39,927 nucleotides of DNA from Paludibacter jiangxiensis (lineage in GTDB: Bacteria > Bacteroidota > Bacteroidia > Bacteroidales > Paludibacteraceae): assembly GCA_945870155.1 (NCBI GenBank), contig CAMBSB010000032.1, positions 1 to 39,927 of the forward strand, given 5' to 3'. A program made the translations under genes and the position numbers. Positions 9,486 through 26,631 of this stretch are shown in pieces. Numbering within the stretch: the stretch's first letter is position 1; each line of letters opens with the position of its first letter. The notes beneath the pieces were generated by a model. It ran no database searches. It saw only the letters and a list, made by a program, of their open reading frames with translations, and was not told the DNA's origin.

Positions 9486-9962
9486 TTAGTTTAACCCATT
9501 GATAACTTTTTGATTTGTAATGATTTCTTCAATAAACACTTGTGGTTCATCTTTGTAAATCAAACTTAGTATTTCATTTAAATTTAAATCAATAATATTT
9601 AAGCAACCATATATTAAGGCTATAACCACCGCCCTGTTTACAGCGCCTTCATCTGTATTCATACATGACCGGGCCATCAATTGCCCATCCAATTCATCAA
9701 GCGTTAAAGTAGCATGATAGTAATTATAGTTAATTACATTTATGGCTCTTAACACCGCTATATGTTTCACTTTCGGTATTTTTACAGGAAAATCAGCAAA
9801 ACATGAAATCATCTGTTGCGCATCATCACATCTAAGAACCAGATTAACATCTGAATTTTGCGTTTTTAAACGAAAAGAAAATAAAGATTGTTCCTCTGCA
9901 TACAAATACTTTAACTCAAGCTCTGCGAAAATATCTTTTATAATTTCTGTAAGTGCTTTCAT
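9486..9962 (-). CDS. YbjN-like / CesT-like fold protein
   Basis: 158 residues, soluble. The order of elements resembles YbjN/type III secretion chaperone-like proteins: an N-terminal helix, a beta sheet with F-x-F-R-L and LVLRCDDAQQMISCFADFP, a helix with LRAINVINYNYYHATLTLDEL, and a sheet strand GQLMARSCMNTDEG. In that family the domain commonly binds other proteins as a small chaperone or regulator. Identification rests on pattern rather than a diagnostic motif, hence moderate confidence. The spacer to the HD gene upstream is 28 bp, and the membrane WG-repeat gene follows 14 bp later. Confidence 0.5.
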   Translation of the reverse strand: MKALTEIIKDIFAELELKYLYAEEQSLFSFRLKTQNSDVNLVLRCDDAQQMISCFADFPVKIPKVKHIAVLRAINVINYNYYHATLTLDELDGQLMARSCMNTDEGAVNRAVVIALIYGCLNIIDLNLNEILSLIYKDEPQVFIEEIITNQKVINGLN

Positions 9963-9990
9963 AATTTTTTTAGCGTTTAAATTGTTAGTT

Positions 9991-10503
9991 TTAATTCAAA
10001 ATGGCATTCAGTTCAGCTATCATTTTGCTGTATGTAAACTTGTTGTTGTTATCAATCAGTGAATTTATGAAATGCTCATTTTCTGTACGGTAAACCTGTT
10101 TCATACGCGAATCTGTATCTGCAGCGTATTTTGCATTCGCTAATCTGTCACAGAGTTTTACAAAACTTGCAAAATCACAATTTTTAATGCCTTCATAATA
10201 CTTTTCATTTGCTCTGTCTTTGCGTGTTTTGCCTTTTTCATTCGTAACAGCATACACTATATCGGCAACTGTTGGATTTGCAACTTTAAGTATATCATTG
10301 TAAGTCATGCGTGTATCTTCAATGGTATCGTGCAGCCAACAAGCATCAATAACAACAGAATGATAAGACTCCGGAACTAAATGAATATATTTTTGTGCAA
10401 AACTTGCTGTTAATGCCAAATGCACTGAATAAGGTTTATTATCGTATAAATGGTTTACTATCTGATGTGCCTCTATGGCAAAAGCAATAATTTTTGAGTC
10501 CAT
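9991..10503 (-). CDS. Stand-alone HD hydrolase, SpoT/MESH1-like (small alarmone hydrolase candidate)
   Basis: 170 residues consisting of one HD domain. Motifs match the hydrolase half of RelA/SpoT proteins: KPYSVHLALT (His28), WLHDTIEDT (His58-Asp59, Glu62-Asp63), and VKLCDRLANAK (Asp119), equivalent to HP, HDxxEDT and KLADRLxNM in SpoT. No synthetase or TGS domain is attached, so it fits a Mn-dependent (p)ppGpp or related nucleotide hydrolase (inference). No partner synthetase gene is in this window. It opens a likely unit with the YbjN-like, membrane WG and 112-aa genes. Confidence 0.78.
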   Translation of the reverse strand: MDSKIIAFAIEAHQIVNHLYDNKPYSVHLALTASFAQKYIHLVPESYHSVVIDACWLHDTIEDTRMTYNDILKVANPTVADIVYAVTNEKGKTRKDRANEKYYEGIKNCDFASFVKLCDRLANAKYAADTDSRMKQVYRTENEHFINSLIDNNNKFTYSKMIAELNAILN

Positions 10504-12147: not shown

Positions 12148-13158
12148 ATGAAACTATTAGATTTTGACAAACATTTCCCAAGTGAAGCTGTTTGTATCGA
12201 AAAATTCAAAGAACTTCGGAATAAATCCGGTATTGTATGCCCTCATTGCGGAAATAAAGAACATATATGGCTTCCTACCTCGATGCACTTTGAATGTAAA
12301 TCCTGTCACAGTAGCAGATCTTTAAGTTCAGGCACTTTTATGCACGGATCTAAATTGCCTTTTTTATATTGGTTTATAGCCATTCATTTGTTCAATAGCA
12401 CCAAAAAGACCTTTTCAGCCTCTGAGATGCAACGACAATTAGGTCATAAACGTTATCAACCCATTTGGGAGATGCTTCATAAAATCCGTAGTGTAATGGG
12501 ACAACGCGATGCCCAATATACTTTTTCGGGAATGTTTGAACTTGACGAAGGCTTTTTCTCTACCGAACGAGATGAAAATGAAAAAACCGAACCTTTGAAA
12601 CGTGGACGTGGTAGTCAGAAGAAAAGCAAAGTGCTTGTAATGGTCGAAAGTCAGCAGGTTGAAAACCCGAAAAATCCAAAGAAACCAAAACGGGTCAATC
12701 ATCTGAAAATGATAGTCATTCCTGATTTAAAAGCAAAAACGATATACCAAAAAGCAACCATATCGATAGATAAAGATGCCTGAATCACAACTGACGGTTC
12801 TAACTCGTACACGAATTTCAAAGACCATTTTGCTCAACACGATGCTTCGGTTGTTTTACCTGAAGAAATTGCGAAAGTTCATCCTTGGGTGCACATAGCC
12901 ATAAGTAATGCAAAATCTTTACTTACGGACATGTATCACGGCATAAAATCAGAATTCCGACAAGGGTATCTGAATGAATTTTGTTATCAATTCAATCGTA
13001 TCAAAATTCCATATGATCCATTTGATAGGCTACTCGCTGATACTGCTTCATATAAATCAAATTTTAAGCATATAACATACAGAAAAATTAAAATTGAAAA
13101 CTGCACACTTTGCGGAAAATCATTTAGTTTTTTTGTTTGGACTATGCCCGAATTATAA
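12148..13158 (+). pseudogene. IS1595-family (ISXO2-like) transposase, broken by one in-frame TGA
   Basis: A frame of 337 codons is open except for a TGA at 12781-12783 (codon 212). The N-terminus has the family zinc ribbon (C31, C34, C50, C53: CPHCGNKEHIW...FECKSCHSS). The catalytic triad is spread over both halves: D133 in FELDEGFF, D216 in TTDGS just after the stop, and N254 in WVHIAISNAK, the DDN(K) arrangement of this family. The C-terminal YLNEFCYQFNR also fits. Both halves read without frameshift, so a single nonsense change (for example CGA to TGA) is the simplest cause. The element sits between the two accessory gene blocks, in the opposite direction to them. Confidence 0.85.
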
Positions 13159-13457: not shown

Positions 13458-14135
13458 TTATCTAAAGTTTCTGATTTTTAGATCAACGATTTCTTTTCTA
13501 TCAGAAAGAGCCTTAAACAATACTTTTTTGTGTGCAGCTAATTCTTCATCAGTTAAACATTGTCTAACCCTCTCCACATTGGTATCAAAACGTTCAAATA
13601 GATCATTCACTACATTCATTTGTTTTAATTCAATCAAAAGAACTACCTTGTCATATAAAGTAAAATCTAGAGTGTTTATTCCAATTCCACACTCTATAAG
13701 CTCCTCATCTACTATTGATTTAACGACTACCCTTTCTTCATTAATTCGTAATAATGAGGGGGAATAATGTTTAAATTCTATTAAATTTTGCCTATTATTT
13801 TTTTCAAACAATGAAACAATATTATCAGTTGCTTTAAAATTCTCAAACAACAAATTTATCAAACTAAACTCTGTATTCAATTCGATTTTTTGAATTAATC
13901 TAATAATACCCGAGTCAGTAGATAATCCATTTTCATTGAAATAACTATCCAATAATGAAATATTAAAATATTCATCAGAATTAGATTGCTCCACATTTCG
14001 TGTTCTCGTATCCTTAACTATAGATACTAAGTTGTCATTGGTTTCAGAAGAATCGGGGTACCACTCTTTAAGTCTGCATACACATCCTTCAAGAACTAGA
14101 ATCAAATGCTTTATTATTGACTTTCCAATATTCAT
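13458..14135 (-). CDS. Unknown last gene of the dynamin/M48 operon, 225 aa
   Basis: No family recognised. The protein is soluble and mostly helical, without signal peptide, membrane segment or P-loop. The middle part (about 60-125) is rich in Asn, Phe and Leu (LLDSYFNENG, LINLLFENF). The C-terminal 100 residues are charged helices (FTLYDKVVLLIELKQMNVVNDLFERF, then LTDEELAAHKKVLF) suggesting a coiled-coil or stalk-like bundle. It begins 2 bp after the stop of the 648-aa GTPase gene, so it is translationally coupled to it and probably works with it. Confidence 0.65.
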   Translation of the reverse strand: MNIGKSIIKHLILVLEGCVCRLKEWYPDSSETNDNLVSIVKDTRTRNVEQSNSDEYFNISLLDSYFNENGLSTDSGIIRLIQKIELNTEFSLINLLFENFKATDNIVSLFEKNNRQNLIEFKHYSPSLLRINEERVVVKSIVDEELIECGIGINTLDFTLYDKVVLLIELKQMNVVNDLFERFDTNVERVRQCLTDEELAAHKKVLFKALSDRKEIVDLKIRNFR

Positions 14136-14137
14136 GA

Positions 14138-16084
14138 CTAATTTATTTTGATTAGATTGTTAACATCGATAATCATACTTTCTACTTGAGGAATCAGTTT
14201 GTTAATCATATCGATTCTGTCTTCATTAGCTTTAATCTGCCTATCTATATCTTTGGCATTATTAGCATTAAACTGCTTTCTCGTATCCTCAATAATTTGA
14301 TCAATATCCTTTTCTATAAGTCCAACCAATTTGGTTTTAATATCTTCGTATTTTACAGTATTTGTATTGATATAATTGTTAGAGAAATCAGCCTCAATCA
14401 TTTCTCTAAAATATCTTCTAATTCCAAGTTCATATACATCTTGGCGTCCCCAATAATCTGGACATATAGCCTTTAACGATATATTGTCTCCAAGCGTCCT
14501 AGGGATATTAGAGTTTATAGTTTGAGCTATTCTCTTGATTACTATTTTATGAATTAATTCGGAATTTGACAAAACAATTTGATCTAACTGACGCTCTAGC
14601 TTAGCCACCTCAGAATGCAAAATCTCCGATATATTATTACCTAAATCTCTGAGTTTGTTACTAAATGTGATATTCAGTTCGCGGTATCTATTTTCAATAA
14701 TATCAAAACACAATCGGAGATATTTCTTTGAGTTTTTTTGTTCAAATTTTATGCTATTAATAACTTCATCTCTGTTATCTCTTAAACTGAACGTAGTGCT
14801 TCCAATGGACTCGGTTGTCCTCGCATCGCATGATGATGTAATCTCTGATGTGTAAATCACTGCTTTCTTCTCAAATTCGTGCAAATCGGCTAACACTGAA
14901 GCTAAGTCAATGCTTTTATCTGAAAGCAACTCGTTTGTTCCCTCTAAATGTTCCTTTTCTAAAGTACATTTGTTAGAATATGCATTCAAAAAAGCACTAA
15001 GTTTTATGATTGGAGCCCTAAGAATCAAATCTTTCTTTTGGTTCATCACAATGTCAGATACTGCTTGTTGCAAATTTAAGATTCCACTTTCGTTCAAATA
15101 ATCCTTTACAGCTAATGATGGATATTCATATTCAATTTGAGACTTTAAGAATTGAAGATTTTGATTATTATTAAATATATCCGGCGTAACTCTCGCAATC
15201 ATGGCCATAGCAGAAGAGACTAAAATAATCGAACAATTAGAAAGCAAATCTTTACATTCATCGTTGTTTGGATCATTCATCAACCTCGTCTTTTCATTCT
15301 CTGCTCTATTGATAATTTTCGTAAATTCTGTTTGATTTACAGAATCTTTTTTATTTATAGCAATAACTATTTTACCGATACCTGATTTGGGTATTTGTTC
15401 TTTTATCAGTGTAATATCTGATTTTGTAAACACGGACAACACTTCTTGAACGCAAATAATTACATTTGCTTGCGATAAGAATTTTTTAGTTGTCATGTCC
15501 CGAGATGATACAGGGTCATTATATCCAGGAGTATCAACAATATTAATTCCTTTTAGATTCTGATCCGGAACAAATAAAGATACAACCTTTGCCAATGGAG
15601 TGTACTCTCCTTCTGCTCCAATATATTTATCTATTTGCTCAGGATTTACTTCTATGGTTTTGCCAAAAAATTGTTTGTAATTTGGAACATTACAAATGAA
15701 TCCATACAACTCTTTTGCAGCTTTTATTTCTTCAATTTCGATATTTTCGCTGGGCTGCATATTTTTTTTTTCTGAAATCTCTTTGAAATCGGATTCAGAT
15801 ATCATTTCAACCTTTGCTGAAAATTTCTCGCCATAAGAGATATAGGTTAACGTTGCAGTCATTGGAATCTCAGATGTTGGAAGAATGTCATTACCAAATA
15901 CTAAGGAATTTAGCAGTGTTGACTTTCCAACTTTCATTTGACCCACCACGCCGATTGTTAATATATCATTATCAATCTGTTCTAATACTACAGCTGCCTC
16001 TTCATTGTTAATCCATTGTTGCTTTAAACAAGAATACACATAGCTCCTTACTTTATCTTTATATTCGTTAATTGACAGTTTCAT
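14138..16084 (-). CDS. Dynamin-family GTPase, 648 aa
   Basis: A large GTPase with all the motifs: G1 GQMKVGKS at 48-55, G2 threonine in IPMTATLTYI, G3 DTPGYND, G4 NKKD, and a VSSAM-type G5. After about residue 350 it becomes a long helical region with coiled-coil heptads, ending in KANEDRIDMINKLIPQVESM. This corresponds to the stalk and bundle-signalling element of bacterial dynamin-like proteins. I see no clear membrane helix, so any membrane contact would be through a paddle or a partner. Bacterial dynamins often act as pairs that assemble and deform or fuse membranes. It lies 10 bp downstream of the 443-aa GTPase gene. Confidence 0.88.
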   Translation of the reverse strand: MKLSINEYKDKVRSYVYSCLKQQWINNEEAAVVLEQIDNDILTIGVVGQMKVGKSTLLNSLVFGNDILPTSEIPMTATLTYISYGEKFSAKVEMISESDFKEISEKKNMQPSENIEIEEIKAAKELYGFICNVPNYKQFFGKTIEVNPEQIDKYIGAEGEYTPLAKVVSLFVPDQNLKGINIVDTPGYNDPVSSRDMTTKKFLSQANVIICVQEVLSVFTKSDITLIKEQIPKSGIGKIVIAINKKDSVNQTEFTKIINRAENEKTRLMNDPNNDECKDLLSNCSIILVSSAMAMIARVTPDIFNNNQNLQFLKSQIEYEYPSLAVKDYLNESGILNLQQAVSDIVMNQKKDLILRAPIIKLSAFLNAYSNKCTLEKEHLEGTNELLSDKSIDLASVLADLHEFEKKAVIYTSEITSSCDARTTESIGSTTFSLRDNRDEVINSIKFEQKNSKKYLRLCFDIIENRYRELNITFSNKLRDLGNNISEILHSEVAKLERQLDQIVLSNSELIHKIVIKRIAQTINSNIPRTLGDNISLKAICPDYWGRQDVYELGIRRYFREMIEADFSNNYINTNTVKYEDIKTKLVGLIEKDIDQIIEDTRKQFNANNAKDIDRQIKANEDRIDMINKLIPQVESMIIDVNNLIKIN

Positions 16085-16094
16085 TGCTTTATTT

Positions 16095-17426
16095 TTATTT
16101 TAATATTGAATTCGATTTCTTAATGAGTTGGACGCAATTATTTCTTGCTGCAGTATAATTGTCCAACATCTCAGTTATTCGCTCTAAATAACTAACTGTT
16201 TGTCCATAACTCACCATTTGATCCACATCAAAATCATTGAGGCTTTTTACCATTCTATTGTAACAGTCTACCATTGTATTGCTGTTATTTACCAGAGTTC
16301 CGTACGTACCTCCAAAGCAAGCATATGTATTTTGGCATTTGCTATTTATAGTACTCGTTAGACTGTTTATGCTATTGCGAAGAGTTTCTACGTTATCAAT
16401 CAATGATTTGTGAATTTTCTTTATAGATCGTTCAAAATCTCGACATTGAGAAGCTACATCGTTCTTTGTCTCTGTTACTTCATTTATTTTTTCATTAAGT
16501 GAATCTTGAATAAGTTTTAGGTAATGATTCAACATCTCTTGCGGTTGAAATTGCTGGAAGTTCTTTGATTCAATCCCAAACGTTTTGTTTATAGCTTGGA
16601 TCTGATTCTCCACACTAAACTCATGCGTATCTCTTAGCCCAAAATAGAAGGTGTCTTCTACTTTAATATCCTTGCTTTTTAGTTGATTCAAGACACTTGT
16701 TCTTATCTTCTCTATATTCGGCACACGATCGGCAAAGGAAAGTACTATATATAGTTTTTTCCCTTCTAAAAATTGCTGAATAAATTCGATTTCGAACTGA
16801 GTGATGGCACCAGATGTAGCCCTTACGACCCAAAGCACTATATCGCACTTATTTGCAGCATTAGCAGTTGTGGTATAGTCATATTCATTGTCGGTTGTAA
16901 TACCGGGTGTATCGAGAAAACTTATCTTCTTTAGCAGTTCGTTCTGTTTAAATAGAACAGTATTTTGTATTAACTTCCGCAAATTAAAACCTTGCGCCTC
17001 TTCGTGTGAAAGTCTTGGCTCAAGGTCTATAGGAATAATTTTAATATTATCGTCGTTATCCACCAAGCAATGTTTGGTATTCTGTCCATAAGCAATGTAA
17101 GTAGGGACAGCTGTAACAGGAATAATTCCTACTGGCAAGTTTATACCAAGCAAAGTGTTCAATAATGATGATTTACCAGCATTATAAGCACCCATTAATC
17201 CGACTATACATTTATCTTTTAGCCAAGGATTCTGTTGGAGCATATACCAATATGAGAATAATCCATTCATATTGTTAATAAAATCCACATTAAAGAGATT
17301 AAGATTATCAACATATTCGGTTATTTCATTTTTACATTCAACGACCTTTCGTATTTGTTGCTCATCTATGTTAGATTTTTCGCAAGGTAAGTCGTTTATT
17401 CGTTGTAGATCTTGAATCGTTAACAT
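16095..17426 (-). CDS. Dynamin-family GTPase, 443 aa, unusual G4 motif
   Basis: G1 is GAYNAGKS at 79-86, G2 threonine in PVTAVPTYI, and G3 DTPGITTD. Where N/T-K-x-D is expected after the hydrophobic strand (LYIVL), the sequence reads SFADRV. The Asp is kept but Asn and Lys are lost, so guanine recognition may be altered. The C-terminal 150 residues are predicted helices with coiled-coil character (NEKINEVTETKNDVASQCRD), shorter than a full dynamin stalk. No membrane helix is seen. It is 12 bp from the 346-aa GTPase gene upstream and 10 bp from the 648-aa GTPase gene downstream. Confidence 0.85.
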   Translation of the reverse strand: MLTIQDLQRINDLPCEKSNIDEQQIRKVVECKNEITEYVDNLNLFNVDFINNMNGLFSYWYMLQQNPWLKDKCIVGLMGAYNAGKSSLLNTLLGINLPVGIIPVTAVPTYIAYGQNTKHCLVDNDDNIKIIPIDLEPRLSHEEAQGFNLRKLIQNTVLFKQNELLKKISFLDTPGITTDNEYDYTTTANAANKCDIVLWVVRATSGAITQFEIEFIQQFLEGKKLYIVLSFADRVPNIEKIRTSVLNQLKSKDIKVEDTFYFGLRDTHEFSVENQIQAINKTFGIESKNFQQFQPQEMLNHYLKLIQDSLNEKINEVTETKNDVASQCRDFERSIKKIHKSLIDNVETLRNSINSLTSTINSKCQNTYACFGGTYGTLVNNSNTMVDCYNRMVKSLNDFDVDQMVSYGQTVSYLERITEMLDNYTAARNNCVQLIKKSNSILK

Positions 17427-17438
17427 TTCTATTATATT

Positions 17439-18479
17439 TTAATTGTTTATTTGTACGTCTTTCAGAGTGCCAATTAGATGTTGGATTAAATCACCTATTA
17501 TCTGTCTATCGTGTACTAATTTAGTACGTTGTTCTTTAATTGTTCTTTTTTCATCAACCGGACATATTTTGAGAAGATCATCACATTCGGCAATTTTACT
17601 TTTTAAACGTCTGTACACTTCATCGCACTCATATTTTATTATTGACATCCTTGATATTAGAGGAATCTTTGAAGAATTTTCTATCAAGTAATTTCTAAAA
17701 AAGTCCGAAAAAGCAATTACATCAGGGTCATCCTCATTGGCTGACACAAAGAAAAGACCTGTTGAAAATGATAGAGTGTTATAATATTCTGCAAAATACA
17801 CCTTTGATAATTCCTCGATAACTTTCTTATCACTTTCTTTTCTTATCATGTCCATTTTGTTAATAACAAACACTATGTTTTTGCCAAGGTAATTATAATA
17901 TCTTCCAATAAGATCTTCAATCTTTTGTAGTTCTAAAGCATCAATCACGAATACAATAAAATCACTTTTATCCATATGCCCAAAGGTGATTTTATCCATT
18001 TCAAGAGTATCATACAATCCCGGAGTATCAAATAATTCAACCCTATGCTTCAACAATTCATTAGGTATGCCAATTTCTACCTTAATTATGTCTTTAATAT
18101 TATCACCTTGTGTCGAATTATTCTTTACTGTGAACTGATTTATTTGTTCGTAACTAAAGACCGTTTCGTTCGACTGACCATTGATATCATGTATAACTTT
18201 ATATTTTGATAATTCAGAATGATAAATTCTTGTTACCACACCCGTTGCAGGGACTATTTTTGATATTACAACTTTCTCGTCCAATAAGGCATTGATAACT
18301 GCAGATTTACCCGCATTAAATCGACCACATAACGTTATTCTTACACAGTTACTTTCCCAAAGCTCAGACTTATTATTAATTATCTCAATAAGTTGCTCTT
18401 TAGATTCATTGTCATATAAACAATTGGTTGAATAATTTAACACCCGTAATATTTTTTCCTTTTCAAAACGGAATAACAT
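17439..18479 (-). CDS. Dynamin-like small GTPase, 346 aa
   Basis: G1 GRFNAGKS at 52-59, G2 in PATGVVTRI, G3 DTPGLYD, G4 NKMD: a complete GTP-binding site. Only about 80 residues follow the G domain, forming a helix pair (EVYRRLKSKIAECDDLL, then KLVHDRQIIGDLIQHLIG). It therefore lacks the long stalk of classical dynamins and resembles the shorter GTPases found next to them. No membrane segment. It follows the two-TM protein gene by 6 bp and precedes the 443-aa GTPase by 12 bp. A regulatory or nucleating subunit of a hetero-oligomer is one possibility (inference). Confidence 0.85.
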   Translation of the reverse strand: MLFRFEKEKILRVLNYSTNCLYDNESKEQLIEIINNKSELWESNCVRITLCGRFNAGKSAVINALLDEKVVISKIVPATGVVTRIYHSELSKYKVIHDINGQSNETVFSYEQINQFTVKNNSTQGDNIKDIIKVEIGIPNELLKHRVELFDTPGLYDTLEMDKITFGHMDKSDFIVFVIDALELQKIEDLIGRYYNYLGKNIVFVINKMDMIRKESDKKVIEELSKVYFAEYYNTLSFSTGLFFVSANEDDPDVIAFSDFFRNYLIENSSKIPLISRMSIIKYECDEVYRRLKSKIAECDDLLKICPVDEKRTIKEQRTKLVHDRQIIGDLIQHLIGTLKDVQINN

Positions 18480-18485
18480 TTGTTG

Positions 18486-19019
18486 CTACTTTGTATCAAT
18501 GTTATTTATAATAATATCTATCTGCTTCTTGTAGTTGAGAAGCTGCTTCTTATATTCATTTACATAATACTCCCGCTTCTTGTTGATCTTATCTGATTGG
18601 ATTGTTGACAAAATTGTCCACATAAGCATTGTTCCTATGATTGATATTCCGTATAATTTCCATCCTTGTATATTTATTAAATAGCCAAGAGATACGTAAA
18701 GTATTGCACCGAACATTACACAAATTGGTAACAATATCAACTTGGAAGGATAGACTTCCTTTATTTTAACTATTTTGATAATCATTACTTCTTGTAGAAG
18801 TCGGGCTTTAAGATTTTTGTTTTCAATGGTGTTAAACCATGTGTTTTCGTAAGAATTACCAAATCTCCATTTTTCAAAGCTTTTACTAATTACTTTATTG
18901 ACATCATCCATATTTGGAGTATTTCCTTCATTATATGCTTTGCGAATAGAAGAAACGGCAGAAGAAACAACAACCTCCCATTGTCTTTCAAATTCATTTT
19001 TGAATGTACTCATTTTCAT
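18486..19019 (-). CDS. Two-TM membrane protein in the dynamin operon, 177 aa
   Basis: Residues 1-95 are charged and helical (FKNEFERQWEVVVSSAVSSI). Two adjacent membrane helices follow (about 95-116 LILLPICVMFGAILYVSLGYL, and 122-142 LYGISIIGTMLMWTIL), then a Lys-rich coiled-coil tail (KINKKREYYVNEYKKQLLNY). Both ends are probably cytoplasmic, giving a hairpin anchor like that of membrane-docked dynamin partners. Family not recognised. Starts are possible at 19019 or at the ATG 6 bp later (MSTFK). A strong hairpin (19030-19088) lies directly upstream, inside the operon. Confidence 0.7.
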   Translation of the reverse strand: MKMSTFKNEFERQWEVVVSSAVSSIRKAYNEGNTPNMDDVNKVISKSFEKWRFGNSYENTWFNTIENKNLKARLLQEVMIIKIVKIKEVYPSKLILLPICVMFGAILYVSLGYLINIQGWKLYGISIIGTMLMWTILSTIQSDKINKKREYYVNEYKKQLLNYKKQIDIIINNIDTK

Positions 19020-19029
19020 TGTTTTATTG

Positions 19030-19088
19030 ATGCGACCACAGGCATAGTATTAATATGATTTATTATATACTATGCCATAAAGTCGCAT
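19030..19088 (-). promoter_or_regulatory. Large bipartite hairpin inside the dynamin operon
   Basis: ATGCGAC (19030-19036) pairs with GTCGCAT (19082-19088), and GGCATAGTAT (19041-19050) with ATACTATGCC (19067-19076). They are separated by a small internal loop and a 16-nt apical loop. It fills most of the longest spacer in the operon (84 bp), between the 706-aa GTPase stop and the two-TM protein start. No T-run follows, so it is not a typical terminator. An RNA-processing site, attenuator or small palindromic element is possible. Confidence 0.65.
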
Positions 19089-19103
19089 TAAGGTTTATTC
19101 TAT

Positions 19104-21224
19104 TTACATCACTTTTAGTTGTTCTAATGAAAGAGTTTTTCCGTCATATACAATTGAATATGATTTTTTAATAATTTCATATAGATGCTCTATGATGTAA
19201 TCGCATCGTTTCTTCTCTTGCTCGACATCAACACGTTTGCCAGCAATCTCAGATAGGAAATCCAACAATGACTTTTCTATAGATTTTAATTCATCAAATA
19301 ATGGCTTGCAATTTTTTGTTTTCAGTGCATCCATTTGAGACTCTAAAATATAATCATTTTCATTTCTTTTGTCATTGAGCATGGATATTAGCTCCTTTTG
19401 AAGAACCTCCTTTGCGTTATTAATAAAATTGAGTTTTGCCTTTTGCTTGTTTTTTAAAAACTGCCAAACTTCAATAGCGATTACAATTGGAATGCCAAAT
19501 CCTCCTGTTACATATATGATAGTCCCTTGCCATAGAGCATTAAAAACAGATTTTTTAAAGAACTCCATCCACTGAGATTTCCCTTGCGACATTCCCCTCG
19601 CAGCTTCGCTAAAATCGCCAAAATATAAAGAGATGATATTTTGAACAAAATTGGGATTGCTTACTTGAATAGCTGCATCAAGAGGATTGTCTACTTGACC
19701 TCGAATTTTATTTATTGCCTCAGTAATTTCTGAGATATTTTGGCCTGTTTCTTTCTCAAAGTTTTTAATATAATCTTTAATTCTATTTTGTTCTCTCGAA
19801 ATATATGAGTTAATCTTTATTGCAAAATGTTCGGCTACAGCATTTGAGAATGGTTTTAATAAATTGGCGGCCTTTTCAGCTCGTTCGTCTTTTGACTTAA
19901 ATATATTAATATTAGTTCCGATTAATTTCAGATATTGAACGATGTCAAAATTGGTCTCTTCACCAATTTGAATTGCATCATCCTCCCACGTTTGCAAAAC
20001 ATCATCAAAGCATCCATCAATAATGTTCTTCATATCTCGTTGAATCGTTACAGTGGCGATATCGTAATTTTTTTGCACAATAGATATTTTAGCTCGTTGT
20101 TTCTGCAATTCGCTTTCTATTTTATCTTGTTCCGGAAGTCTTCCATTAATGTAGTCTTCTCTAATTTTAATTTCATTATCAGCCACTATCTTTGCTTCTT
20201 TATAAACACTTGATAATTTCGAGAATGCTGATGAATACTCTGCTTTGCATTTCTCGTCTGTTGTTAGAAAGACCTCTAGCTCTTTTTCAAAACTATAAAA
20301 TTCATTAGATAATTTTTCACCTTTCAGTTTTGCATTTAAAGTGTTAAGTGCACTCAAATAAAAAACCCTGCGGCTATACAAATTCTCATCTATTACTCCA
20401 TCTTTGTCGTGAAAAATATCTCCCACAGATAACTTGATTGTTTCTTTAACATCATCTATCTCATGCTGTTGTACAAAATCCATTTTATTTACAAGAATAA
20501 ACACGTTATTATATCCCTTCTTGTAAAAGTTCTTCTCTAGATATTCTCTTTCATCAACATCGAATTGGCTAAGAGCAGATACAACATATATTATTGCCTT
20601 TGCTTCTTGAAATGAAGTTAGTGTAGTACGTGTGTCATTCGAGTTATTCTTTAATCCGGGACTGTCAATAATTTGTACTCCATTGTCCATTAAACTATTT
20701 TTAATATTAAGGATAGTATGATCTATTGAAGCAAATCTCTTTACACTTTTTGTCTCTTTATATTCTCTGTCATCAGCAAGTGTATAATAGAATTCTCTCT
20801 TAAAATCAACTATAGATATGTTCTTTTTTTCTTGTTGGGTTATATTCACTTCAGATATATTACCAGCTTCAGAACAAGATACAGTAGTATTCCTTTTATA
20901 TATGATGTCTGCGGTGTTCTCAGGCACTCCATTTCTAATATATGATAAAACCGCTGTACATGGCTTTATTGACTCAGGCAACAATTCTTGCCCTAAAATG
21001 GCATTGATCATTTTACTTTTCCCGGCACTAAAAACCCCCATTACTAGTATTTTAAAAATGCCTTCATTTAAGGATTTTGCCACATCATCACATATATTCT
21101 TTTCTTTAATCATATTTAATCCAAGGATTATACCATCTTTATTTTGAGTTTTTTCCCCAATTAAAGAAGATACTTCATTAAAAGCTATTTCTAAAGCTTT
21201 TGTTTTTTCTACATTGTAAGCCAT
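19104..21224 (-). CDS. Dynamin-family GTPase with membrane segment, 706 aa
   Basis: The largest GTPase of the cluster. G1 is GVFSAGKS at 63-70, G2 in PCTAVLSYI, G3 DSPGLKN, G4 NKMD. A long helical stalk follows (about 340-540), then a hydrophobic paddle-like segment (about 545-580, ALWQGTIIYVTGGFGIPIVI), then a helical return (KQKAKLNFINNAKEVLQKEL) and a C-terminal coiled coil. This order (G domain, stalk, membrane paddle, stalk) is that of bacterial dynamin-like proteins such as BDLP. It probably binds and reshapes the inner membrane. It is preceded 12 bp upstream by the P-loop-less paralogue. Confidence 0.9.
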   Translation of the reverse strand: MAYNVEKTKALEIAFNEVSSLIGEKTQNKDGIILGLNMIKEKNICDDVAKSLNEGIFKILVMGVFSAGKSKMINAILGQELLPESIKPCTAVLSYIRNGVPENTADIIYKRNTTVSCSEAGNISEVNITQQEKKNISIVDFKREFYYTLADDREYKETKSVKRFASIDHTILNIKNSLMDNGVQIIDSPGLKNNSNDTRTTLTSFQEAKAIIYVVSALSQFDVDEREYLEKNFYKKGYNNVFILVNKMDFVQQHEIDDVKETIKLSVGDIFHDKDGVIDENLYSRRVFYLSALNTLNAKLKGEKLSNEFYSFEKELEVFLTTDEKCKAEYSSAFSKLSSVYKEAKIVADNEIKIREDYINGRLPEQDKIESELQKQRAKISIVQKNYDIATVTIQRDMKNIIDGCFDDVLQTWEDDAIQIGEETNFDIVQYLKLIGTNINIFKSKDERAEKAANLLKPFSNAVAEHFAIKINSYISREQNRIKDYIKNFEKETGQNISEITEAINKIRGQVDNPLDAAIQVSNPNFVQNIISLYFGDFSEAARGMSQGKSQWMEFFKKSVFNALWQGTIIYVTGGFGIPIVIAIEVWQFLKNKQKAKLNFINNAKEVLQKELISMLNDKRNENDYILESQMDALKTKNCKPLFDELKSIEKSLLDFLSEIAGKRVDVEQEKKRCDYIIEHLYEIIKKSYSIVYDGKTLSLEQLKVM

Positions 21225-21236
21225 GATAAATTATTT

Positions 21237-22907
21237 TTATGATTTAAACGTTGGGATAATTTGTTCTTCTACTTCATTTAAATAAGACAATATTTCTGTC
21301 GAATTCTCTAGCTTATTTCTTTGGTTAATAAGCAAATCAAATAATTCTTTTAGTACATTATTATACATTATTTCTGTTTGCTCTTTCATCTTAGAGACTA
21401 TCATATCAAATTGTAAGGTCGCCTGTTTGGCAACCTGTTCTTTTAAATTATCAGACATTCTAGATACAGCCTGTTCAAGCTGGTCTTTCCTGTCTGAATG
21501 AATAGAATCTTTAAATAGTTTTTTGATTAATTGTGAACCGCCTAAAGTTAGTAGACCTGCTATTGGATTAAAAATAAATAAAACAACAGAACCAATATTC
21601 AAACACTTTGTTAGCTCTTCTACACCTGTCTTTTTTGACTTCTCAATTATAAATGATTTTGGGTCATATTTTTGAGATAAATATTCAGCAATTATTGATT
21701 GAGAATGTGAATCTAACTGTCCAACAATTTCAAGTAAATCGTTATTGATAATAGATTCAATTTGTGTAGCTTCTTCAAGAACTTTGTCTCTTAACCAAGG
21801 ATTTTGATTTTCCATGAATTTACTCCAAACAAAATCCATATACTTGTTTAAATATTTTGAATCTTCATCAATCTTTTCTGAGACATCAATGTCTCTGCAA
21901 ACTGATTTTATAAATTCTGCATTGAATTCATCTATTCTTCTAAAATACAAATTCAGCGCATATTCCTTGAAATATGACTCAATTTTTCTATTGATTTTGG
22001 TAAGACTAGATGTTACGATTTCATTATTATTAGTCAATAAATTAATGCTCTTATCAATATTCCCAATATTCCCCTTTAATGAATCCTTATAATCAGGCAA
22101 AATACTTAGTAATTCTGCTATTGAAAATGAAATAAGGTCTTCTTTTGTTTTTTTCCTTAATTGTAAAGTGTCTTTATCAATACCTTGAAGTCGATTAACA
22201 AAAGAGCTATTGTTATAGGTTGTAAGTAAATATTCAATTTTAGCTTTATCTTCAACAAAAATATGAACATAATCTTTGATTTCATTAAATTCTTTTTCAT
22301 CTAAAAATTCGATATTGCCAATAATAAAAGATAATCTATCATATGAAAAAACTTTTGATAGTAAATTATTGAAAAAATCTTTCTCTTTAGCATTAAATGC
22401 CTGCAGACCATCCAATAAATAAAATGCATAATCTGACCCTGTTAACTTTGAAACCCAGTCATAGTATGTTACATCTGAAAAATCCTTTACATACAAAAAA
22501 TTTAAAATGATATTATCGTATTTTAGGTTATTTTGATTTATGAATCCATTTGCTATTTGAGTTTGGCCAGTTGTGTTTTTATTTGACAGAGATTTTATAA
22601 AATTATTCTCAGTTACAAGTATAGTTTCATTATCAATTGTCAGCTTATATTGTGGTGAAACACTATTATAAATTTGAAGATCACAATTATTTAATCTGAA
22701 TGAGTCATTACATTCAAGACCAATTGTTTGTTTCAAAAAGTTTTTTGCAATATGACTATGTGTTGTTATAATTATAATTTCAATTTTTTCACCTAAGTTC
22801 CTTTGACCTTGTTCTATAACACCATTCAACTCGATTAAAGAATTAATATCTAATTTTGAATATATCTGGCTTAGTTGTTCTAACTTATGTTTCTCTTCTG
22901 ATTTCAT
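21237..22907 (-). CDS. Dynamin-like pseudo-GTPase with membrane segment, 556 aa
   Basis: It aligns by pattern with the 706-aa neighbour but without a nucleotide site. At the G1 position (about 41-64), where the neighbour has ILVMGVFSAGKSKMINAILG, it reads EIIIITTHSHIAKNFLKQTI. G3 is replaced by KDFSDVTYYD, and at the G4 strand (FIIGNIEFLDEKE) NKMD has become NIEF. The stalk-like helices and a hydrophobic paddle (about 455-480, IGSVVLFIFNPIAGLLTLGG) are kept, as is a C-terminal coiled coil. It is probably a non-catalytic partner of the active dynamins (inference). Spacing is 5 bp from the M48 gene upstream. Confidence 0.75.
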   Translation of the reverse strand: MKSEEKHKLEQLSQIYSKLDINSLIELNGVIEQGQRNLGEKIEIIIITTHSHIAKNFLKQTIGLECNDSFRLNNCDLQIYNSVSPQYKLTIDNETILVTENNFIKSLSNKNTTGQTQIANGFINQNNLKYDNIILNFLYVKDFSDVTYYDWVSKLTGSDYAFYLLDGLQAFNAKEKDFFNNLLSKVFSYDRLSFIIGNIEFLDEKEFNEIKDYVHIFVEDKAKIEYLLTTYNNSSFVNRLQGIDKDTLQLRKKTKEDLISFSIAELLSILPDYKDSLKGNIGNIDKSINLLTNNNEIVTSSLTKINRKIESYFKEYALNLYFRRIDEFNAEFIKSVCRDIDVSEKIDEDSKYLNKYMDFVWSKFMENQNPWLRDKVLEEATQIESIINNDLLEIVGQLDSHSQSIIAEYLSQKYDPKSFIIEKSKKTGVEELTKCLNIGSVVLFIFNPIAGLLTLGGSQLIKKLFKDSIHSDRKDQLEQAVSRMSDNLKEQVAKQATLQFDMIVSKMKEQTEIMYNNVLKELFDLLINQRNKLENSTEILSYLNEVEEQIIPTFKS

Positions 22908-22912
22908 ATCGC

Positions 22913-23836
22913 TTAGATTACTTTAATTAAATTGTTGACTAAATCATTTAATGCCTCGTCACTATAAAGATTTATATTGGATGGTATTGGCTTATTAGTG
23001 ACCCGATAGTATAGTTCCGATTTGGAAAAATACTCCAAGGATTTTAGTCTCTTAGGGATAAGCGGATGTGACATTAGGTATTCGTTAATTGCTCCTACTT
23101 TATGTTCTTCAAGTGAAGTCATACTTTTATCTATGTATGCATCGATATCAATAAGATGAGTGTCACTGAATCCTCCAACCAATCTCAGAAGTGCTCTCTG
23201 TGAAATATCAAGATTACCATCGCAACAAATAAATCCTGCTCTATCAGCTGAAATCTCAGAATAACGACTCCATCCATTAAGTGGGAGCATTACAGTGTTT
23301 GCCAAAATTGGTCCAATAACCGGCAAATAGGATCCAATTTGACCAATATACTGACCTATAGAATGATAAACAACATGTTCCAGTGCAATATGACCACATT
23401 CATGACCAATTATAAATTTTAATTGATCTTCTGGCAATAAGGCTTGTGCCAAATCGCTGATTACAATAAATGAAAATTCATTAGTGCCAGTTGCCATTGC
23501 ATTAATCCCAGACATTTCAGTTGAAATCACAGCTTGAGGTATTGTAATTCCCAAATTATCACAACAACTTTGTAAACTATTGTATATCTTCGGATAGTTA
23601 TATGGATTTACTGATAACCCCGTCGACAACATGATTCCTGATTGTTGTGAAACAAACACTTCTACTAGTTTATTTATGGCAGTTTTTACTGGCAGAGCCT
23701 CAAGTGCGCTAATTACTTTTCCATCTATTTTATGAGCAAAAGCTAATCGTTGAGAATATAAATTAACTTTCGTTTTTTCATCCTCAATAAACTCATTTAA
23801 GGATAGATAATTTTTATTTTGAAATTCAAATGACAT
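22913..23836 (-). CDS. M48-family metallopeptidase, copy 3 (307 aa)
   Basis: The zinc site HECGH is at 145-149, with the third ligand Glu in YSEISADRAGFICC about 50 residues later (E-x3-D motif). A moderately hydrophobic stretch lies between them (IGSYLPVIGPILANTVMLPL). Unlike HtpX there are no N-terminal membrane helices and no signal peptide, so it is probably a cytosolic or membrane-peripheral protease. The ADRAG-x-x-CC ending is shared by all three M48 proteins here. It lies 15 bp after the second M48 gene and 5 bp before the pseudo-GTPase. Confidence 0.88.
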   Translation of the reverse strand: MSFEFQNKNYLSLNEFIEDEKTKVNLYSQRLAFAHKIDGKVISALEALPVKTAINKLVEVFVSQQSGIMLSTGLSVNPYNYPKIYNSLQSCCDNLGITIPQAVISTEMSGINAMATGTNEFSFIVISDLAQALLPEDQLKFIIGHECGHIALEHVVYHSIGQYIGQIGSYLPVIGPILANTVMLPLNGWSRYSEISADRAGFICCDGNLDISQRALLRLVGGFSDTHLIDIDAYIDKSMTSLEEHKVGAINEYLMSHPLIPKRLKSLEYFSKSELYYRVTNKPIPSNINLYSDEALNDLVNNLIKVI

Positions 23837-23851
23837 AATATTATGCTTTAG

Positions 23852-24688
23852 TTAAATATTCCTTGAAATTATTTTATCGTAGTATTTCTCTTTCTCCCAA
23901 TTCAGCAGCTCAGCAGCTCTCATTACTGTCCACGGATGTGTTGAATCCATCACTGAAACAATTTTTATTAGTTTATTAAAACCATCATAATCTAATCTTT
24001 TAAATGTAGTAGCCTGCTCAATGAAAGTATCATGTACAATTTGATTATAATACTTAACGGGAGTACCAGCAATTTTCATCATGGCACCAATGGCTGCATT
24101 TAAATCCTGACAGCAAAGTAACCCCGCTCTGTCAGCAGTAAATTCTGACATCCTATACCAATACATTAAAGCAAACTGAATGGGTCTTGTTAATAATTTT
24201 CCAATACCAAGAGTAAAATCACCAATCAATTCAGCTATTTCATTGTATCCCTGCGCTAACATATGATAAAGCATATGTTTACTCTTAATATGACCTATTT
24301 CATGTCCTAACACAAAAAGCAGTTCGTTTTCACTACATAAATCAATAGCACCAGAGTTCAATACAATAAAAGGTTTTTCAGCACCGGTTGTAAACCCGTT
24401 AATATCATATCCCCATTGTAAATACAAATCAGGTATTTCGTTCAAATCAAGGATTGAACATGCCAATAACAACATTTTATAAATATCAGGAAAATTCCTT
24501 TTATCAACCCTAAGATTACTTCCCGTATACTGTATGGTGTAGTATCGTTCAATAGTATGTTTTACTATTAGCTTTGAAATCTTCTCTGATGCTGGATTAT
24601 TTTCTAATGTTTCAAGCGCTTTCCTGTCAAAAGGATGTTCGTAATCCTTATGATTTAATCCTCTCAGTATTTTACTACTCTCAATCAT
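23852..24688 (-). CDS. M48-family metallopeptidase, copy 2 (278 aa)
   Basis: HEIGH at 129-133 and YRMSEFTADRAGLLCC complete the zinc site. The segment before the HExxH (INGFTTGAEKPFIVLNSGAI) has the typical M48 pattern of a beta strand leading into the active-site helix. No signal peptide. The intervening region (LIGDFTLGIGKLLTRPIQFALMYW) could be an amphipathic or re-entrant hairpin. Its start codon overlaps the previous gene's stop (ATGA, 4-bp overlap), so the first two M48 genes are translationally coupled. Confidence 0.88.
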   Translation of the reverse strand: MIESSKILRGLNHKDYEHPFDRKALETLENNPASEKISKLIVKHTIERYYTIQYTGSNLRVDKRNFPDIYKMLLLACSILDLNEIPDLYLQWGYDINGFTTGAEKPFIVLNSGAIDLCSENELLFVLGHEIGHIKSKHMLYHMLAQGYNEIAELIGDFTLGIGKLLTRPIQFALMYWYRMSEFTADRAGLLCCQDLNAAIGAMMKIAGTPVKYYNQIVHDTFIEQATTFKRLDYDGFNKLIKIVSVMDSTHPWTVMRAAELLNWEKEKYYDKIISRNI

Positions 24689-25611
24689 ACATTTTCTTTA
24701 ACTAGAAGTTCAATTCTTTTATTTAAATCATTATCGATATTTAGTAGATGTATGTTTGTCCATATTTCTGTCTTTTTCAGACCCAAATTCATAAAATTCA
24801 TAAAAGTATCCAATGCCTCAACTCTTTTTGTAGTCATAGGATGTTTATTTCCTATTTCAAAATAATTTTGTTTTATATCATTTTTATGGTTATCAATATA
24901 TTTGCGACTATAATCATCCCAATTACTAATACTTTCAAAATCAAAACTAATATCCGCTCCAATTAACATCCTTTTTCCAGTTTCTAAATCTCTGCAACAT
25001 ATCAACCCGGCGCGGTCGGCTGTTATTTCTGAACACCTATGCCAATAATTGATAGGTACTTCAATCAAATCAGAAACCATACTACTTAATACAGGAGAGC
25101 TAATCTTTGAACTTTCCAATGTTCCATATATAGTATGTACACTCAGGTTGTTTTGTATAATATGTCCACACTCATGGCCTATCAGAAAAAGTAATTCCTG
25201 TTCGTTTAACCACACAGTTGCTCCCCTACTCAAAGCTATAAAGGAAAAATGATCTGAGCCCAATGTTAATGCATTGATTCCATGCAGTTCGTTAGTGATA
25301 ATTAAATTGGGTATTTCATTCAAATTTAATCTGTCGCTACAGGTTTTAAGAATGTGATATACAAAAGGGTGTGATTTAGATTTAATCTTTATTCCACCTG
25401 AATATAGTGCTTCAATTTTATCAGCATATTGTTTTTCAACTACTTTGTTTAAAACTGTCCGTAAATAGCTATTATTTAATAATTCAACAAATGACCCTTC
25501 CATAGGGTGTGAAAACGAACATTCATACTTTGGTAAAGTTTTCATTTCTCCGATTTTTGTAATTAAACCAGTGGCAGATTTATAAATTCCAGTATCAGAA
25601 AACTTTACCAT
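24685..25611 (-). CDS. M48-family metallopeptidase, copy 1 (308 aa)
   Basis: HECGH at 146-150 and HRCSEITADRAGLICC give a complete zinc site. The N-terminal 60 residues (CSFSHPMEGSFVELLNN) share a HP-[FM] segment with copy 2 (YEHPFDRKALETLENN), which may mark a common partner-binding region. A conserved GINALTLGSDHFSFIALS strand precedes the active-site helix. No signal peptide. It begins 6 bp after the stop of the 119-aa possible anti-sigma gene, placing three proteases directly behind the regulators. Confidence 0.88.
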   Translation of the reverse strand: MVKFSDTGIYKSATGLITKIGEMKTLPKYECSFSHPMEGSFVELLNNSYLRTVLNKVVEKQYADKIEALYSGGIKIKSKSHPFVYHILKTCSDRLNLNEIPNLIITNELHGINALTLGSDHFSFIALSRGATVWLNEQELLFLIGHECGHIIQNNLSVHTIYGTLESSKISSPVLSSMVSDLIEVPINYWHRCSEITADRAGLICCRDLETGKRMLIGADISFDFESISNWDDYSRKYIDNHKNDIKQNYFEIGNKHPMTTKRVEALDTFMNFMNLGLKKTEIWTNIHLLNIDNDLNKRIELLVKENV

Positions 25612-25617
25612 TTTGTT

Positions 25618-25977
25618 TTATTGTTTTTTTAATTCCTGTGATAAATTCTCAAGCCTTGCCCATATTGCCTCCGGATTCCTTTTCTTCAACTTTTCATGTT
25701 GTTTGTTTTCTTTCCCGGTAAGAGGTGCAAATGCAGCTGCTGAATAAATTATGTCATTTATTTTATATGTATTATTTCCTTCAGCAGAACTTAGATTAAA
25801 AGTCGGCTTTTGATCTTCATCATCCAGTAACATGGCATTAGTTTGTATTAGAATACTTTCAATTTCATCCGGGTTCTTCATTAAGTAGACCAAAACAAGT
25901 TTTCGTTCTTCAGCTGTCACCTTGTTTTCAATATACTTAGTTATCAATTCATCGGATATTTTCTGGTTATCGCTCAT
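25618..25977 (-). CDS. Small acidic protein, possible cytoplasmic anti-sigma factor, 119 aa
   Basis: No zinc-binding Cys/His cluster and no membrane helix are present. The N-terminal 40 residues (ISDELITKYIENKVTAEERK, then VLVYLMKNPDEI) follow the short helical pattern of Bacteroidota anti-sigma N-termini, such as those of FecR-type proteins, which bind the sigma factor. The remainder is polar with an Ala-rich patch (YSAAAFAPLTGKENKQ) and a charged C-terminal helix. The gene is 15 bp downstream of the sigma gene, which is the strongest argument for a regulatory role. Without a membrane segment it would respond to a cytoplasmic signal. The function remains a hypothesis. Confidence 0.5.
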   Translation of the reverse strand: MSDNQKISDELITKYIENKVTAEERKLVLVYLMKNPDEIESILIQTNAMLLDDEDQKPTFNLSSAEGNNTYKINDIIYSAAAFAPLTGKENKQHEKLKKRNPEAIWARLENLSQELKKQ

Positions 25978-25992
25978 GTTGTTTTATGGTTT

Positions 25993-26631
25993 TTAATTTC
26001 CAAGTAAATTTTTGATTTCTTTGATTGCCCTAGACCTAAGCGTATATACATAATCTTTAGATATTTTTTCATCTCTGTTTTCTATCTTATTACCATCTTT
26101 TTTTTCCTGTTTATGAATAATTTTTCTTTTAGTCAATTCCGTTGCAATCTCTTCATCGCTATATCCTTCGAGGTATAAGCTCATTACAATTTTGTAACTT
26201 TCCGGTTTAAGCCGATTAATAGCATCATAAATCTCTAACAATTGCATTCTTTTTTCCACAGAATTAACATTTTCGGGCTGTTCAATTGGTGTTACATCTA
26301 TATTGATTGTTTTTTCTGAAAAACCTATCAAATTTTTCCGTTTTTCGAGAATTAAATTTCGCCCGATTCTACATATATAGCTCTTTAATGATGATTCTCC
26401 CTTAAAATCTCTTACCGACTTCCAATTGTTTTTTTGCAAATTGATAAATAGCTCACTAATTAAATCATGCAATAATTCGTCATTCCCGTAATAATAATTG
26501 GTATAGTACTTAAGCTGATTCCAGCATTTATTATACAATAAATAGGATATAGCTTCTTCATTTCCATTGTCTACAATTAATGATATTAATTCTTTATCGT
26601 TATAATTTTTGTAAGTATCTAATAAGTTCAT
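25993..26631 (-). CDS. ECF-like sigma-70 family factor with Lys-rich insertion
   Basis: 212 residues. Region 2 spans about 30-100 (ELLHDLISELFINLQKN, then SLKSYICRIGRNLILEKRK). Region 4 spans about 133-208 (AINRLKPESYKIVMSLYLEG, YSDEEIATEL, YVYTLRSRAIKEIKNLL). Between the two helices of the region 4 DNA-binding motif there is a charged insertion of about 22 residues (168-190, KRKIIHKQEKKDGNKIENRD), which normal ECF factors lack. It is the first gene of the twelve-gene operon, so it probably activates the operon's own promoter together with an anti-sigma factor (inference). No convincing consensus promoter is visible upstream, which would fit self-activation. Confidence 0.82.
   Translation of the reverse strand: MNLLDTYKNYNDKELISLIVDNGNEEAISYLLYNKCWNQLKYYTNYYYGNDELLHDLISELFINLQKNNWKSVRDFKGESSLKSYICRIGRNLILEKRKNLIGFSEKTINIDVTPIEQPENVNSVEKRMQLLEIYDAINRLKPESYKIVMSLYLEGYSDEEIATELTKRKIIHKQEKKDGNKIENRDEKISKDYVYTLRSRAIKEIKNLLGN

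What the first reader, a model, noticed from the sequence alone, without database searches (positions are those of the whole stretch)
13458..26631. Twelve-gene operon: sigma factor, possible anti-sigma, three M48 peptidases, five dynamin-like proteins, two unknown partners
Seen: twelve genes on one strand, most gaps 2-15 bp, one ATGA overlap, and only one spacer above 20 bp (84 bp). Order: sigma, small protein, M48 x3, pseudo-GTPase, 706-aa GTPase, two-TM protein, GTPases of 346, 443 and 648 aa, 225-aa protein. Known: bacterial dynamins work as hetero-oligomeric pairs in membrane fusion, repair and some anti-phage functions, and M48 enzymes such as HtpX do membrane-protein quality control. Inference: a self-regulated membrane repair or defence machine in which the proteases act with, or release, the dynamins. 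I know of no described system with this set.
Basis: partly seen in the sequence, partly recalled or inferred. Interest (0 to 1): 0.92.

Follow-up and report, generated by a model that had tools for sequence, protein, structure and literature searches.

The report
Bacterial dynamin operon with linked metalloproteases
A twelve-gene bacterial operon joins membrane-shaping dynamin proteins to zinc proteases, and the same protease-dynamin pairing recurs in distant bacteria, so it looks like a real and so far undescribed membrane machine.

Summary
It is not a chance cluster. In 38 of 80 M48-seeded loci, six phyla by record title, a dynamin frame lies within 500 bp of the M48 frame on the same strand. 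In 16 of these the order is M48, P-loop-less dynamin, BDLP-type dynamin; a Prevotella contig (L014) repeats sigma, anti-sigma-like protein, M48 x3, pseudo-dynamin, dynamin, two-TM protein. The P-loop-less protein has a mitofusin/BDLP fold. The 119-aa protein resembles anti-sigma N-terminal domains. The three M48s fall in three clades; one is dynamin-linked, two travel with the sigma module and other GTPase systems. Most likely: an inducible membrane-remodelling machine in which an M48 peptidase controls a dynamin/pseudo-dynamin pair, in logic like mitochondrial OMA1-OPA1. Function is inferred. A defence role is open: my flank test was inconclusive. I found no description in print.

The parts
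25993..26631 (-). ECF-type sigma factor, 212 aa, first gene of the operon
   Evidence: TIGR02937 54.1 bits (cut-off 42.9), Sigma70_r2 over cut-off, region 4 below cut-off; same position in L003, L009, L011, L013, L014, L022, L048
25618..25977 (-). 119-aa soluble anti-sigma-like protein; N-terminal domain of about 55 residues as in FecR/RskA/RseA-type anti-sigma factors, no TM segment
   Evidence: alignments A4, A5; profile hits in 21 of 296 Bacteroidota genomes, own copy included; sigma-profile frame (E under 0.01) in 12 of 19 fetched hit loci other than the own copy; FecR 3, RskA_C 3, zf-HC2 1 and RseA_N 1 (under its cut-off) among 10 of those 19 scanned; no hydrophobic segment over 1.4
24685..25611 (-). 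M48 peptidase a, 308 aa, intact HECGH and E...D motifs; clade tied to the sigma/anti-sigma module
   Evidence: Pfam M48 46.1 bits; alignment A1; tree
23852..24688 (-). M48 peptidase b, 278 aa, HEIGH; clade found beside GTPase modules in Bacteroidota
   Evidence: Pfam M48 83.5 bits; tree
22913..23836 (-). M48 peptidase c, 307 aa, HECGH; relatives lie directly upstream of the pseudo-dynamin in Bacteroidota, Bacillota, Chloroflexota, Pseudomonadota and cyanobacteria
21237..22907 (-). 556-aa P-loop-less dynamin (pseudo-GTPase) with a hydrophobic segment at residues 432-450
19104..21224 (-). 706-aa BDLP/mitofusin-type dynamin GTPase, P-loop GVFSAGKS, hydrophobic segment 564-582
   Evidence: Dynamin_N 72.8 bits; family profile matches BDLP 2j68 nearly end to end, E 6.9e-98
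19020..19103 (-). 84-bp spacer with one strong intercistronic hairpin, at the border of the widespread core and the downstream genes
   Evidence: -27.9 kcal/mol, z -7.35, 0 of 200 shuffles as low; no other match longer than 42 bases in the genome
18486..19019 (-). 177-aa protein with two TM segments; weak relatives follow the BDLP-type dynamin in other loci
17439..18479 (-). 346-aa dynamin-family GTPase, P-loop GRFNAGKS
   Evidence: Dynamin_N 70.8 bits
16095..17426 (-). 443-aa dynamin-family GTPase, P-loop GAYNAGKS
   Evidence: Dynamin_N 74.5 bits
14138..16084 (-). 648-aa dynamin-family GTPase, P-loop GQMKVGKS
   Evidence: Dynamin_N 88.1 bits
13458..14135 (-). 225-aa protein, last gene, no family
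   Evidence: no Pfam match at E 0.05; no relative at E 1e-3 among the 1104 frames called in the 81 loci then held

Best explanation
This is an inducible membrane-remodelling machine. Core (shown as a conserved genetic unit): a soluble M48 zinc peptidase, a dynamin that has lost its GTPase site, and an active BDLP/mitofusin-type dynamin, often followed by a small two-TM protein and further dynamins. Inferred working: the pseudo-dynamin and dynamin form a hetero-oligomer that tethers or reshapes the inner membrane, and the M48 peptidase switches it, most likely by cutting one dynamin or its membrane anchor when the membrane is disturbed, as OMA1 does to OPA1 in mitochondria. Inferred control: a sigma factor held by a soluble anti-sigma protein drives the operon, and peptidases a and b, which travel with that pair in Bacteroidota, are candidates for removing the anti-sigma. 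Shown: gene order, recurrence, predicted folds, intact peptidase motifs in nearly all copies, loss of the GTPase motifs. Not shown: contact, cleavage, signal, transcription.
Against: No cleavage, binding or expression data. The M48s here have no TM segment by hydropathy, whereas OMA1 sits in the inner membrane; the 706-aa family is nearer to BDLP and mitofusins than to OPA1 in the solved-structure list. Nostoc foliaceum L033 keeps the gene order with a peptidase whose first zinc histidine is Arg, so activity may not always be needed. In L008 the 706-type dynamin shows no P-loop by my pattern and its pseudo-dynamin frame carries a stop. The true BDLP orthologue of that Nostoc genome (L098, 1479.7 bits to 2j68), and the pseudo-dynamin in L133, have no M48 in the fetched 16-17 kb. 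Of eight ordinary-dynamin clusters fetched for comparison, three have an M48 beside them and five do not. M48a/M48b also occur with other GTPase systems, so their substrate need not be the anti-sigma. Foldseek gave no M48c match at E 0.001.
Confidence: 0.42

Rival explanations
1. Anti-phage or other self-sacrificing defence system: dynamins sense or seal membrane damage during infection and the M48 peptidases are the effectors that are released or activated.
For: Rare and patchy: no hit of the single-protein search in the other 148 relatives; near-full-length hits in 3 of 299, 1 of 249 and 3 of 192 genomes, each count including the centre genome chosen for having it. Window and Prevotella M48c group with a Clostridiales row (SH-aLRT 85), which suggests transfer. 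PADLOC matched 135 families in 80 flank proteins of M48-dynamin loci against 29 in 80 comparison proteins, though much of this is many models hitting one protein. B. subtilis DynA gives phage resistance (PMC8844932, abstract start in search listing). Weak LeoA/LeoBC (Eleos) similarity of three dynamins.
Against: In the 25 families shown per scan, all but mad3 (4 members against 2) and, in the comparison set, TRIP13 and IetA (2 each) hit one member, so no clear enrichment in proteins. No phage match for M48c or the 556-aa protein. Plasmids: 6 records for the 706-aa protein, none covering 80%; 12 for M48c, 3 covering 80% at 24-27% identity, contexts not looked at. Sigma/anti-sigma control is more usual for stress responses (own knowledge).
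Confidence: 0.32
2. Two independent modules placed in one operon: a sigma/anti-sigma/M48a/M48b stress regulon head, and a dynamin module whose M48c merely does quality control of misfolded dynamins, with no switching role.
For: Sigma and M48a occur without these dynamins in L003, L009, L011, L013, L022, L048 (L003 and L048 are cut by contig or locus ends), and M48c-pseudo-dynamin-dynamin without the sigma module in Bacillota, cyanobacteria and others. HtpX is the nearest solved M48 by sequence.
Against: Does not explain why the peptidase gene sits directly before dynamin genes in so many phyla, nor why a general quality-control peptidase would be bound to one membrane machine.
Confidence: 0.22
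3. The linkage is chance or an assembly artefact.
For: Most of the loci are from metagenome-assembled genomes; L061 is titled Klebsiella pneumoniae and L020 is flagged UNVERIFIED_CONTAM in its record title.
Against: 38 of 80 loci from separate records, some titled as strains (L025, L033, L050); clade-specific label; 0 of 40 other M48s near dynamins.
Confidence: 0.01

Closest known systems
OMA1-OPA1 of mitochondria (M48 peptidase acting on a dynamin-related fusion GTPase)
   Same: The same two protein families are functionally paired; membrane remodelling under stress (PMC8027119, passages).
   Different: Bacterial peptidases have no TM segment; the dynamin is of BDLP/mitofusin type; a P-loop-less dynamin, a two-TM protein and a sigma/anti-sigma pair are added; cleavage unproven.
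Bacterial dynamin-like pairs (N. punctiforme BDLP, C. jejuni DLP1/2, IniA)
   Same: Side-by-side dynamin genes in an operon; profile match of the 706-aa family to BDLP 2j68; fold of the 556-aa protein. Pairing in operons is stated as usual for bacterial DLPs in PMC6104087 (passages).
   Different: M48 peptidase gene directly upstream, one partner a pseudo-GTPase, up to five dynamins, own sigma/anti-sigma. The BDLP orthologue of a Nostoc genome has no M48 nearby. The BDLP tube paper has no 'operon', 'protease' or 'peptidase' in its main text (PMC2862293, term search).
Eleos / LeoA-LeoBC
   Same: Dynamin-like GTPases of a bacterial defence candidate.
   Different: Only weak profile matches for three of the four P-loop dynamins; LeoA NCBIfam 21.1 bits against a cut-off of 325 for the 346-aa protein; no M48 (own knowledge of Eleos).
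DO-GTPase conflict systems (Kaur et al. 2020)
   Same: In L013 (Pfam) and by my profile in L009 and L022 the same sigma/anti-sigma/M48a module stands beside DO-GTPase2 proteins.
   Different: No DO-GTPase among the twelve proteins; that paper has no 'dynamin', no 'M48' and no 'sigma factor' in its main text (PMC7159879, term search).
HtpX / BepA M48 peptidases
   Same: Fold and zinc motif.
   Different: HtpX NCBIfam scores far below cut-off; no TM segments; clades tied to dynamins.

Membership tests
Bacterial dynamin-like protein (BDLP) pair | Dynamin G domain with P-loop in at least one partner | tested here: met
   Dynamin_N over cut-off in four proteins
Bacterial dynamin-like protein (BDLP) pair | Full-length BDLP architecture | tested here: met
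   Family profile A3 aligns 3-695 of 711 to 2j68, E 6.9e-98; hydrophobic segment 564-582
Bacterial dynamin-like protein (BDLP) pair | Side-by-side dynamin genes | tested here: met
   556-aa and 706-aa genes, gap 12 bp; predicted fold of the first
Bacterial dynamin-like protein (BDLP) pair | Hetero-oligomer that binds membrane | not testable with these tools
   needs purified proteins
OMA1-OPA1-type pairing | M48 peptidase and dynamin-family protein encoded or acting together | tested here: met
   adjacency in 38 of 80 loci
OMA1-OPA1-type pairing | Membrane-anchored peptidase | tested here: not met
   no 19-residue segment with mean hydropathy 1.4 or more in M48a, b or c
OMA1-OPA1-type pairing | Dynamin partner of the OPA1/Mgm1 type | tested here: inconclusive
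   best solved relatives are BDLP, C. jejuni DLP and mitofusins; no OPA1/Mgm1 name among the 30 listed
OMA1-OPA1-type pairing | Stress-induced cleavage of the dynamin | not testable with these tools
   needs experiment
ECF sigma/anti-sigma pair | ECF sigma factor | tested here: met
   TIGR02937 over cut-off
ECF sigma/anti-sigma pair | Anti-sigma domain encoded next to the sigma gene | tested here: met
   similarity is mostly to the N-terminal part and weak for single hits (best other hit E 4.2e-7)
ECF sigma/anti-sigma pair | The small protein binds and inhibits the sigma factor | not testable with these tools
   needs experiment
Eleos (LeoA/LeoBC) | LeoA/HP0731 family dynamin | tested here: not met
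   NF041922 21.1 bits, cut-off 325, for the 346-aa protein; not listed for the other three P-loop dynamins
DO-GTPase conflict system | Double-GTPase (PF19993) in the operon | tested here: not met
   no PF19993 match in the twelve proteins at E 0.05
HtpX peptidase | HtpX equivalog score and TM segments | tested here: not met
   best 42.4 bits against 341; no TM
Anti-phage defence system | Enrichment beside known defence genes | tested here: inconclusive
   80 of 162 eligible flank proteins against 80 of 184 comparison ones; 135 against 29 PADLOC families matched, but only 25 shown per scan and mostly one protein each; number of proteins hit not given

The most novel reading that the evidence does not exclude
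M48 peptidase plus pseudo-dynamin plus dynamin is a distinct, horizontally spread class of bacterial membrane machine in which a soluble metalloprotease is a built-in switch of a mitofusin-like dynamin heteromer. The pairing of M48 peptidases with dynamins, known from mitochondria as OMA1-OPA1, would then exist as a bacterial genetic unit in six or more phyla, with its own sigma/anti-sigma trigger in some Bacteroidota.
Probability: 0.38. Interest if true: 0.92.

Novelty: new variant of a known kind. Interest (0 to 1): 0.8.

Why it matters
Bacterial dynamins have few known partners or regulators (own knowledge). A peptidase gene fixed beside dynamin genes across phyla names a partner, and makes the question 'how are bacterial dynamins switched?' directly testable with one active-site mutation. 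If the peptidase cuts a dynamin, the protease-dynamin control known from mitochondria has a bacterial counterpart, independent or ancestral. A pseudo-GTPase partner, with relatives that keep an eroded P-loop, also offers a natural test of what the second subunit of dynamin pairs is for.

Tried and rejected

Single-sequence matches missed M48 frames in GC-rich loci, so counts were redone on six-frame translations. Only M48 rows of 150 residues or more went into the tree (95 rows, quick method, SH-aLRT only). The dynamin profiles were built partly from these same loci. The 556-aa protein's database search scored 8000 candidates and returned one relative besides itself; the more distant relatives came from neighbourhoods.
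Full report
Observation. Family searches confirm four P-loop dynamins, three M48 peptidases with intact zinc motifs, an ECF-type sigma factor, and four proteins without a Pfam family above its cut-off. The window lies in an assembly of 5.79 Mb in 339 contigs; the four strong dynamin matches of that genome are in this operon, while two weak ones and its other three M48 matches lie on other contigs. A search of 5.8 billion proteins (8000 candidates scored) returned one relative of the 556-aa protein besides itself (51% identical, P0002); its longest contig has the same length, 13,473 bases, as that of an M48 relative, P0006. That these are one contig is inferred from the length.

Neighbourhoods. 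I seeded a scan of one genome for each of 84,980 species with an alignment of this M48 subfamily (A1) and got the best 80 loci. Profiles of the operon proteins were run on six-frame translations. In 38 of 80 loci a dynamin-family frame lies on the same strand within 500 bp of the M48 frame. Record titles put these in Bacillota (11), Myxococcota (7), Pseudomonadota (5), Cyanobacteriota (4), Bacteroidota (3), Chloroflexota (2) and six without a phylum in the look-up, among them Lujinxingia, a Bradymonadaceae MAG and a filamentous cyanobacterium. The layouts: M48 followed by a P-loop-less dynamin in 16 loci, and in all 16 a 706-aa-type dynamin frame comes next (in L008 without a P-loop by my pattern, in L002 cut by the contig end); M48 followed by a P-loop dynamin in 22 loci, 15 of them with P-loop GEFNHGK[ST], mostly Myxococcota and relatives; within these 22, M48 between two P-loop dynamins in 6 (L037, L050, L051, L056, L057, L061). 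Prevotella L014 has sigma, a 111-aa anti-sigma-like protein, M48a, M48b, M48c, pseudo-dynamin, dynamin, two-TM protein and a further dynamin, in the window's order.

Is the link specific? On a quick tree of 95 M48 rows the label 'dynamin directly adjacent' (39 rows, the window's M48c included) needs 6 changes, against a shuffled mean of 30.4 (0 of 500 as low); a 40-row clade (SH-aLRT 99), which holds M48b and the actinobacterial peptidases, has no such row, though four of its rows have a dynamin further off in the locus. In 15 of the 38 genomes, picked because they hold the pair, 17 of 57 M48 matches lie within 5 kb of one of 54 Dynamin_N matches (the 15 expected and two further M48s of the L014 operon) and 40 do not; one of the 40 has a dynamin on its contig, 49 kb off, the other 39 have none on their contig. 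The reverse search, seeded with the pseudo-dynamin alignment A2, gave eight near-full-length hits in four samples (1 of 395, 3 of 299, 1 of 249, 3 of 192 genomes, centre genomes included), of which seven have an M48 frame beside them (window).

The 706-aa dynamin. Its family profile matches BDLP (2j68) along nearly its whole length, E 6.9e-98, then C. jejuni DLP and mitofusins. It is not BDLP itself: in Nostoc foliaceum the M48-linked family member scores 155.2 bits to 2j68, while another dynamin of that genome scores 1479.7 bits and has no M48 nearby.

The sigma module. The 119-aa protein and seven relatives, all encoded right after a sigma gene, share an N-terminal region and a central AAF motif. 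A profile search of 296 Bacteroidota genomes found 21 genomes with hits at E 0.01, mostly to the first 60 positions and weak, the best apart from the own copy E 4.2e-7. Of the 19 other fetched loci, 12 have a frame matched by my sigma profile at E under 0.01; of 10 of these 19 hit proteins scanned, three are FecR, three RskA_C, one RseA_N just under its cut-off, one zf-HC2 (a usual anti-sigma zinc finger, own knowledge), two unnamed. So it is an anti-sigma-type protein without a TM segment. Sigma, anti-sigma-like protein and M48a also stand before a 768-791-aa P-loop protein and DO-GTPase2 proteins in L009, L013, L022 (Pfam run on L013 only: three DO-GTPase2 over cut-off, Dynamin_N on the 791-aa protein below cut-off), and before an 838-aa P-loop protein in L011; L055, cut at its start, has M48a-M48b before an 836-aa relative of that protein (Dynamin_N below cut-off).

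Mechanism. Shown: a conserved unit of M48 peptidase, pseudo-dynamin and dynamin; a sigma/anti-sigma-type head in the window and L014. Inferred: the two dynamins form a heteromer at the inner membrane; the peptidase is its switch. The precedent is OMA1, whose M48 domain carries out stress-sensitive processing of OPA1 (PMC8027119, passages); I use it as a likeness, not as membership, since the anchoring and the dynamin type differ. Pairing of bacterial dynamins in operons is known (PMC6104087, passages). A defence role is a serious rival because distribution is rare and patchy and DynA gives phage resistance (PMC8844932, abstract start); flank scans were inconclusive and phage and plasmid searches gave no match of the set.

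Literature. Full-text searches for dynamin with M48, metalloprotease, operon, conflict-system and BDLP terms listed no paper that by title and abstract start is on an M48-dynamin operon in bacteria; the library holds open-licence PMC papers only, so a description elsewhere is possible. The DO-GTPase paper has neither 'dynamin' nor 'M48' in its main text (term search). That OMA1 is an M48 peptidase and OPA1 a dynamin was my own recollection first and was then checked.

Noticed in passing
window 19020-19103 (-): Strong hairpin (-27.9 kcal/mol, z -7.35) in the only long spacer of the operon, between the widespread core and the downstream genes; no T run follows it, so perhaps a processing or dosage element.
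   Followed up: partly
L009:13943-18485, L013:10684-17391, L022:11705-18465: A second, related layout: sigma, anti-sigma-like protein and M48 peptidases beside a 768-791-aa P-loop protein and two or three DO-GTPase2-like proteins, followed by another M48.
   Followed up: partly
L003:861-2579: A UG39-type reverse transcriptase (PADLOC RT_UG39, E 3.4e-107) about 6 kb upstream of a sigma/anti-sigma/M48a/M48b set in an Alistipes contig.
   Followed up: no
L033:9923-10828: M48 of the conserved order with RECGH instead of HECGH: probably a dead peptidase kept in place in Nostoc foliaceum.
   Followed up: partly
L061: Record titled Klebsiella pneumoniae (a MAG) carries a dynamin-M48-dynamin cluster that groups with cyanobacterial and Bacillota rows; the label is doubtful.
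   Followed up: no
window 12148-12783 and 12889-13158 (+): IS1595-type transposase, apparently split into two frames, just downstream of the operon and on the opposite strand.
   Followed up: no
window 32408-32439 (-): Rfam DUF805b RNA motif, 39 bits against a gathering score of 35.6.
   Followed up: no
window 6122-10503 (-): Run of genes with two WG-repeat proteins, a VWA-like protein below its cut-off and an HD-domain protein, function unclear.
   Followed up: no
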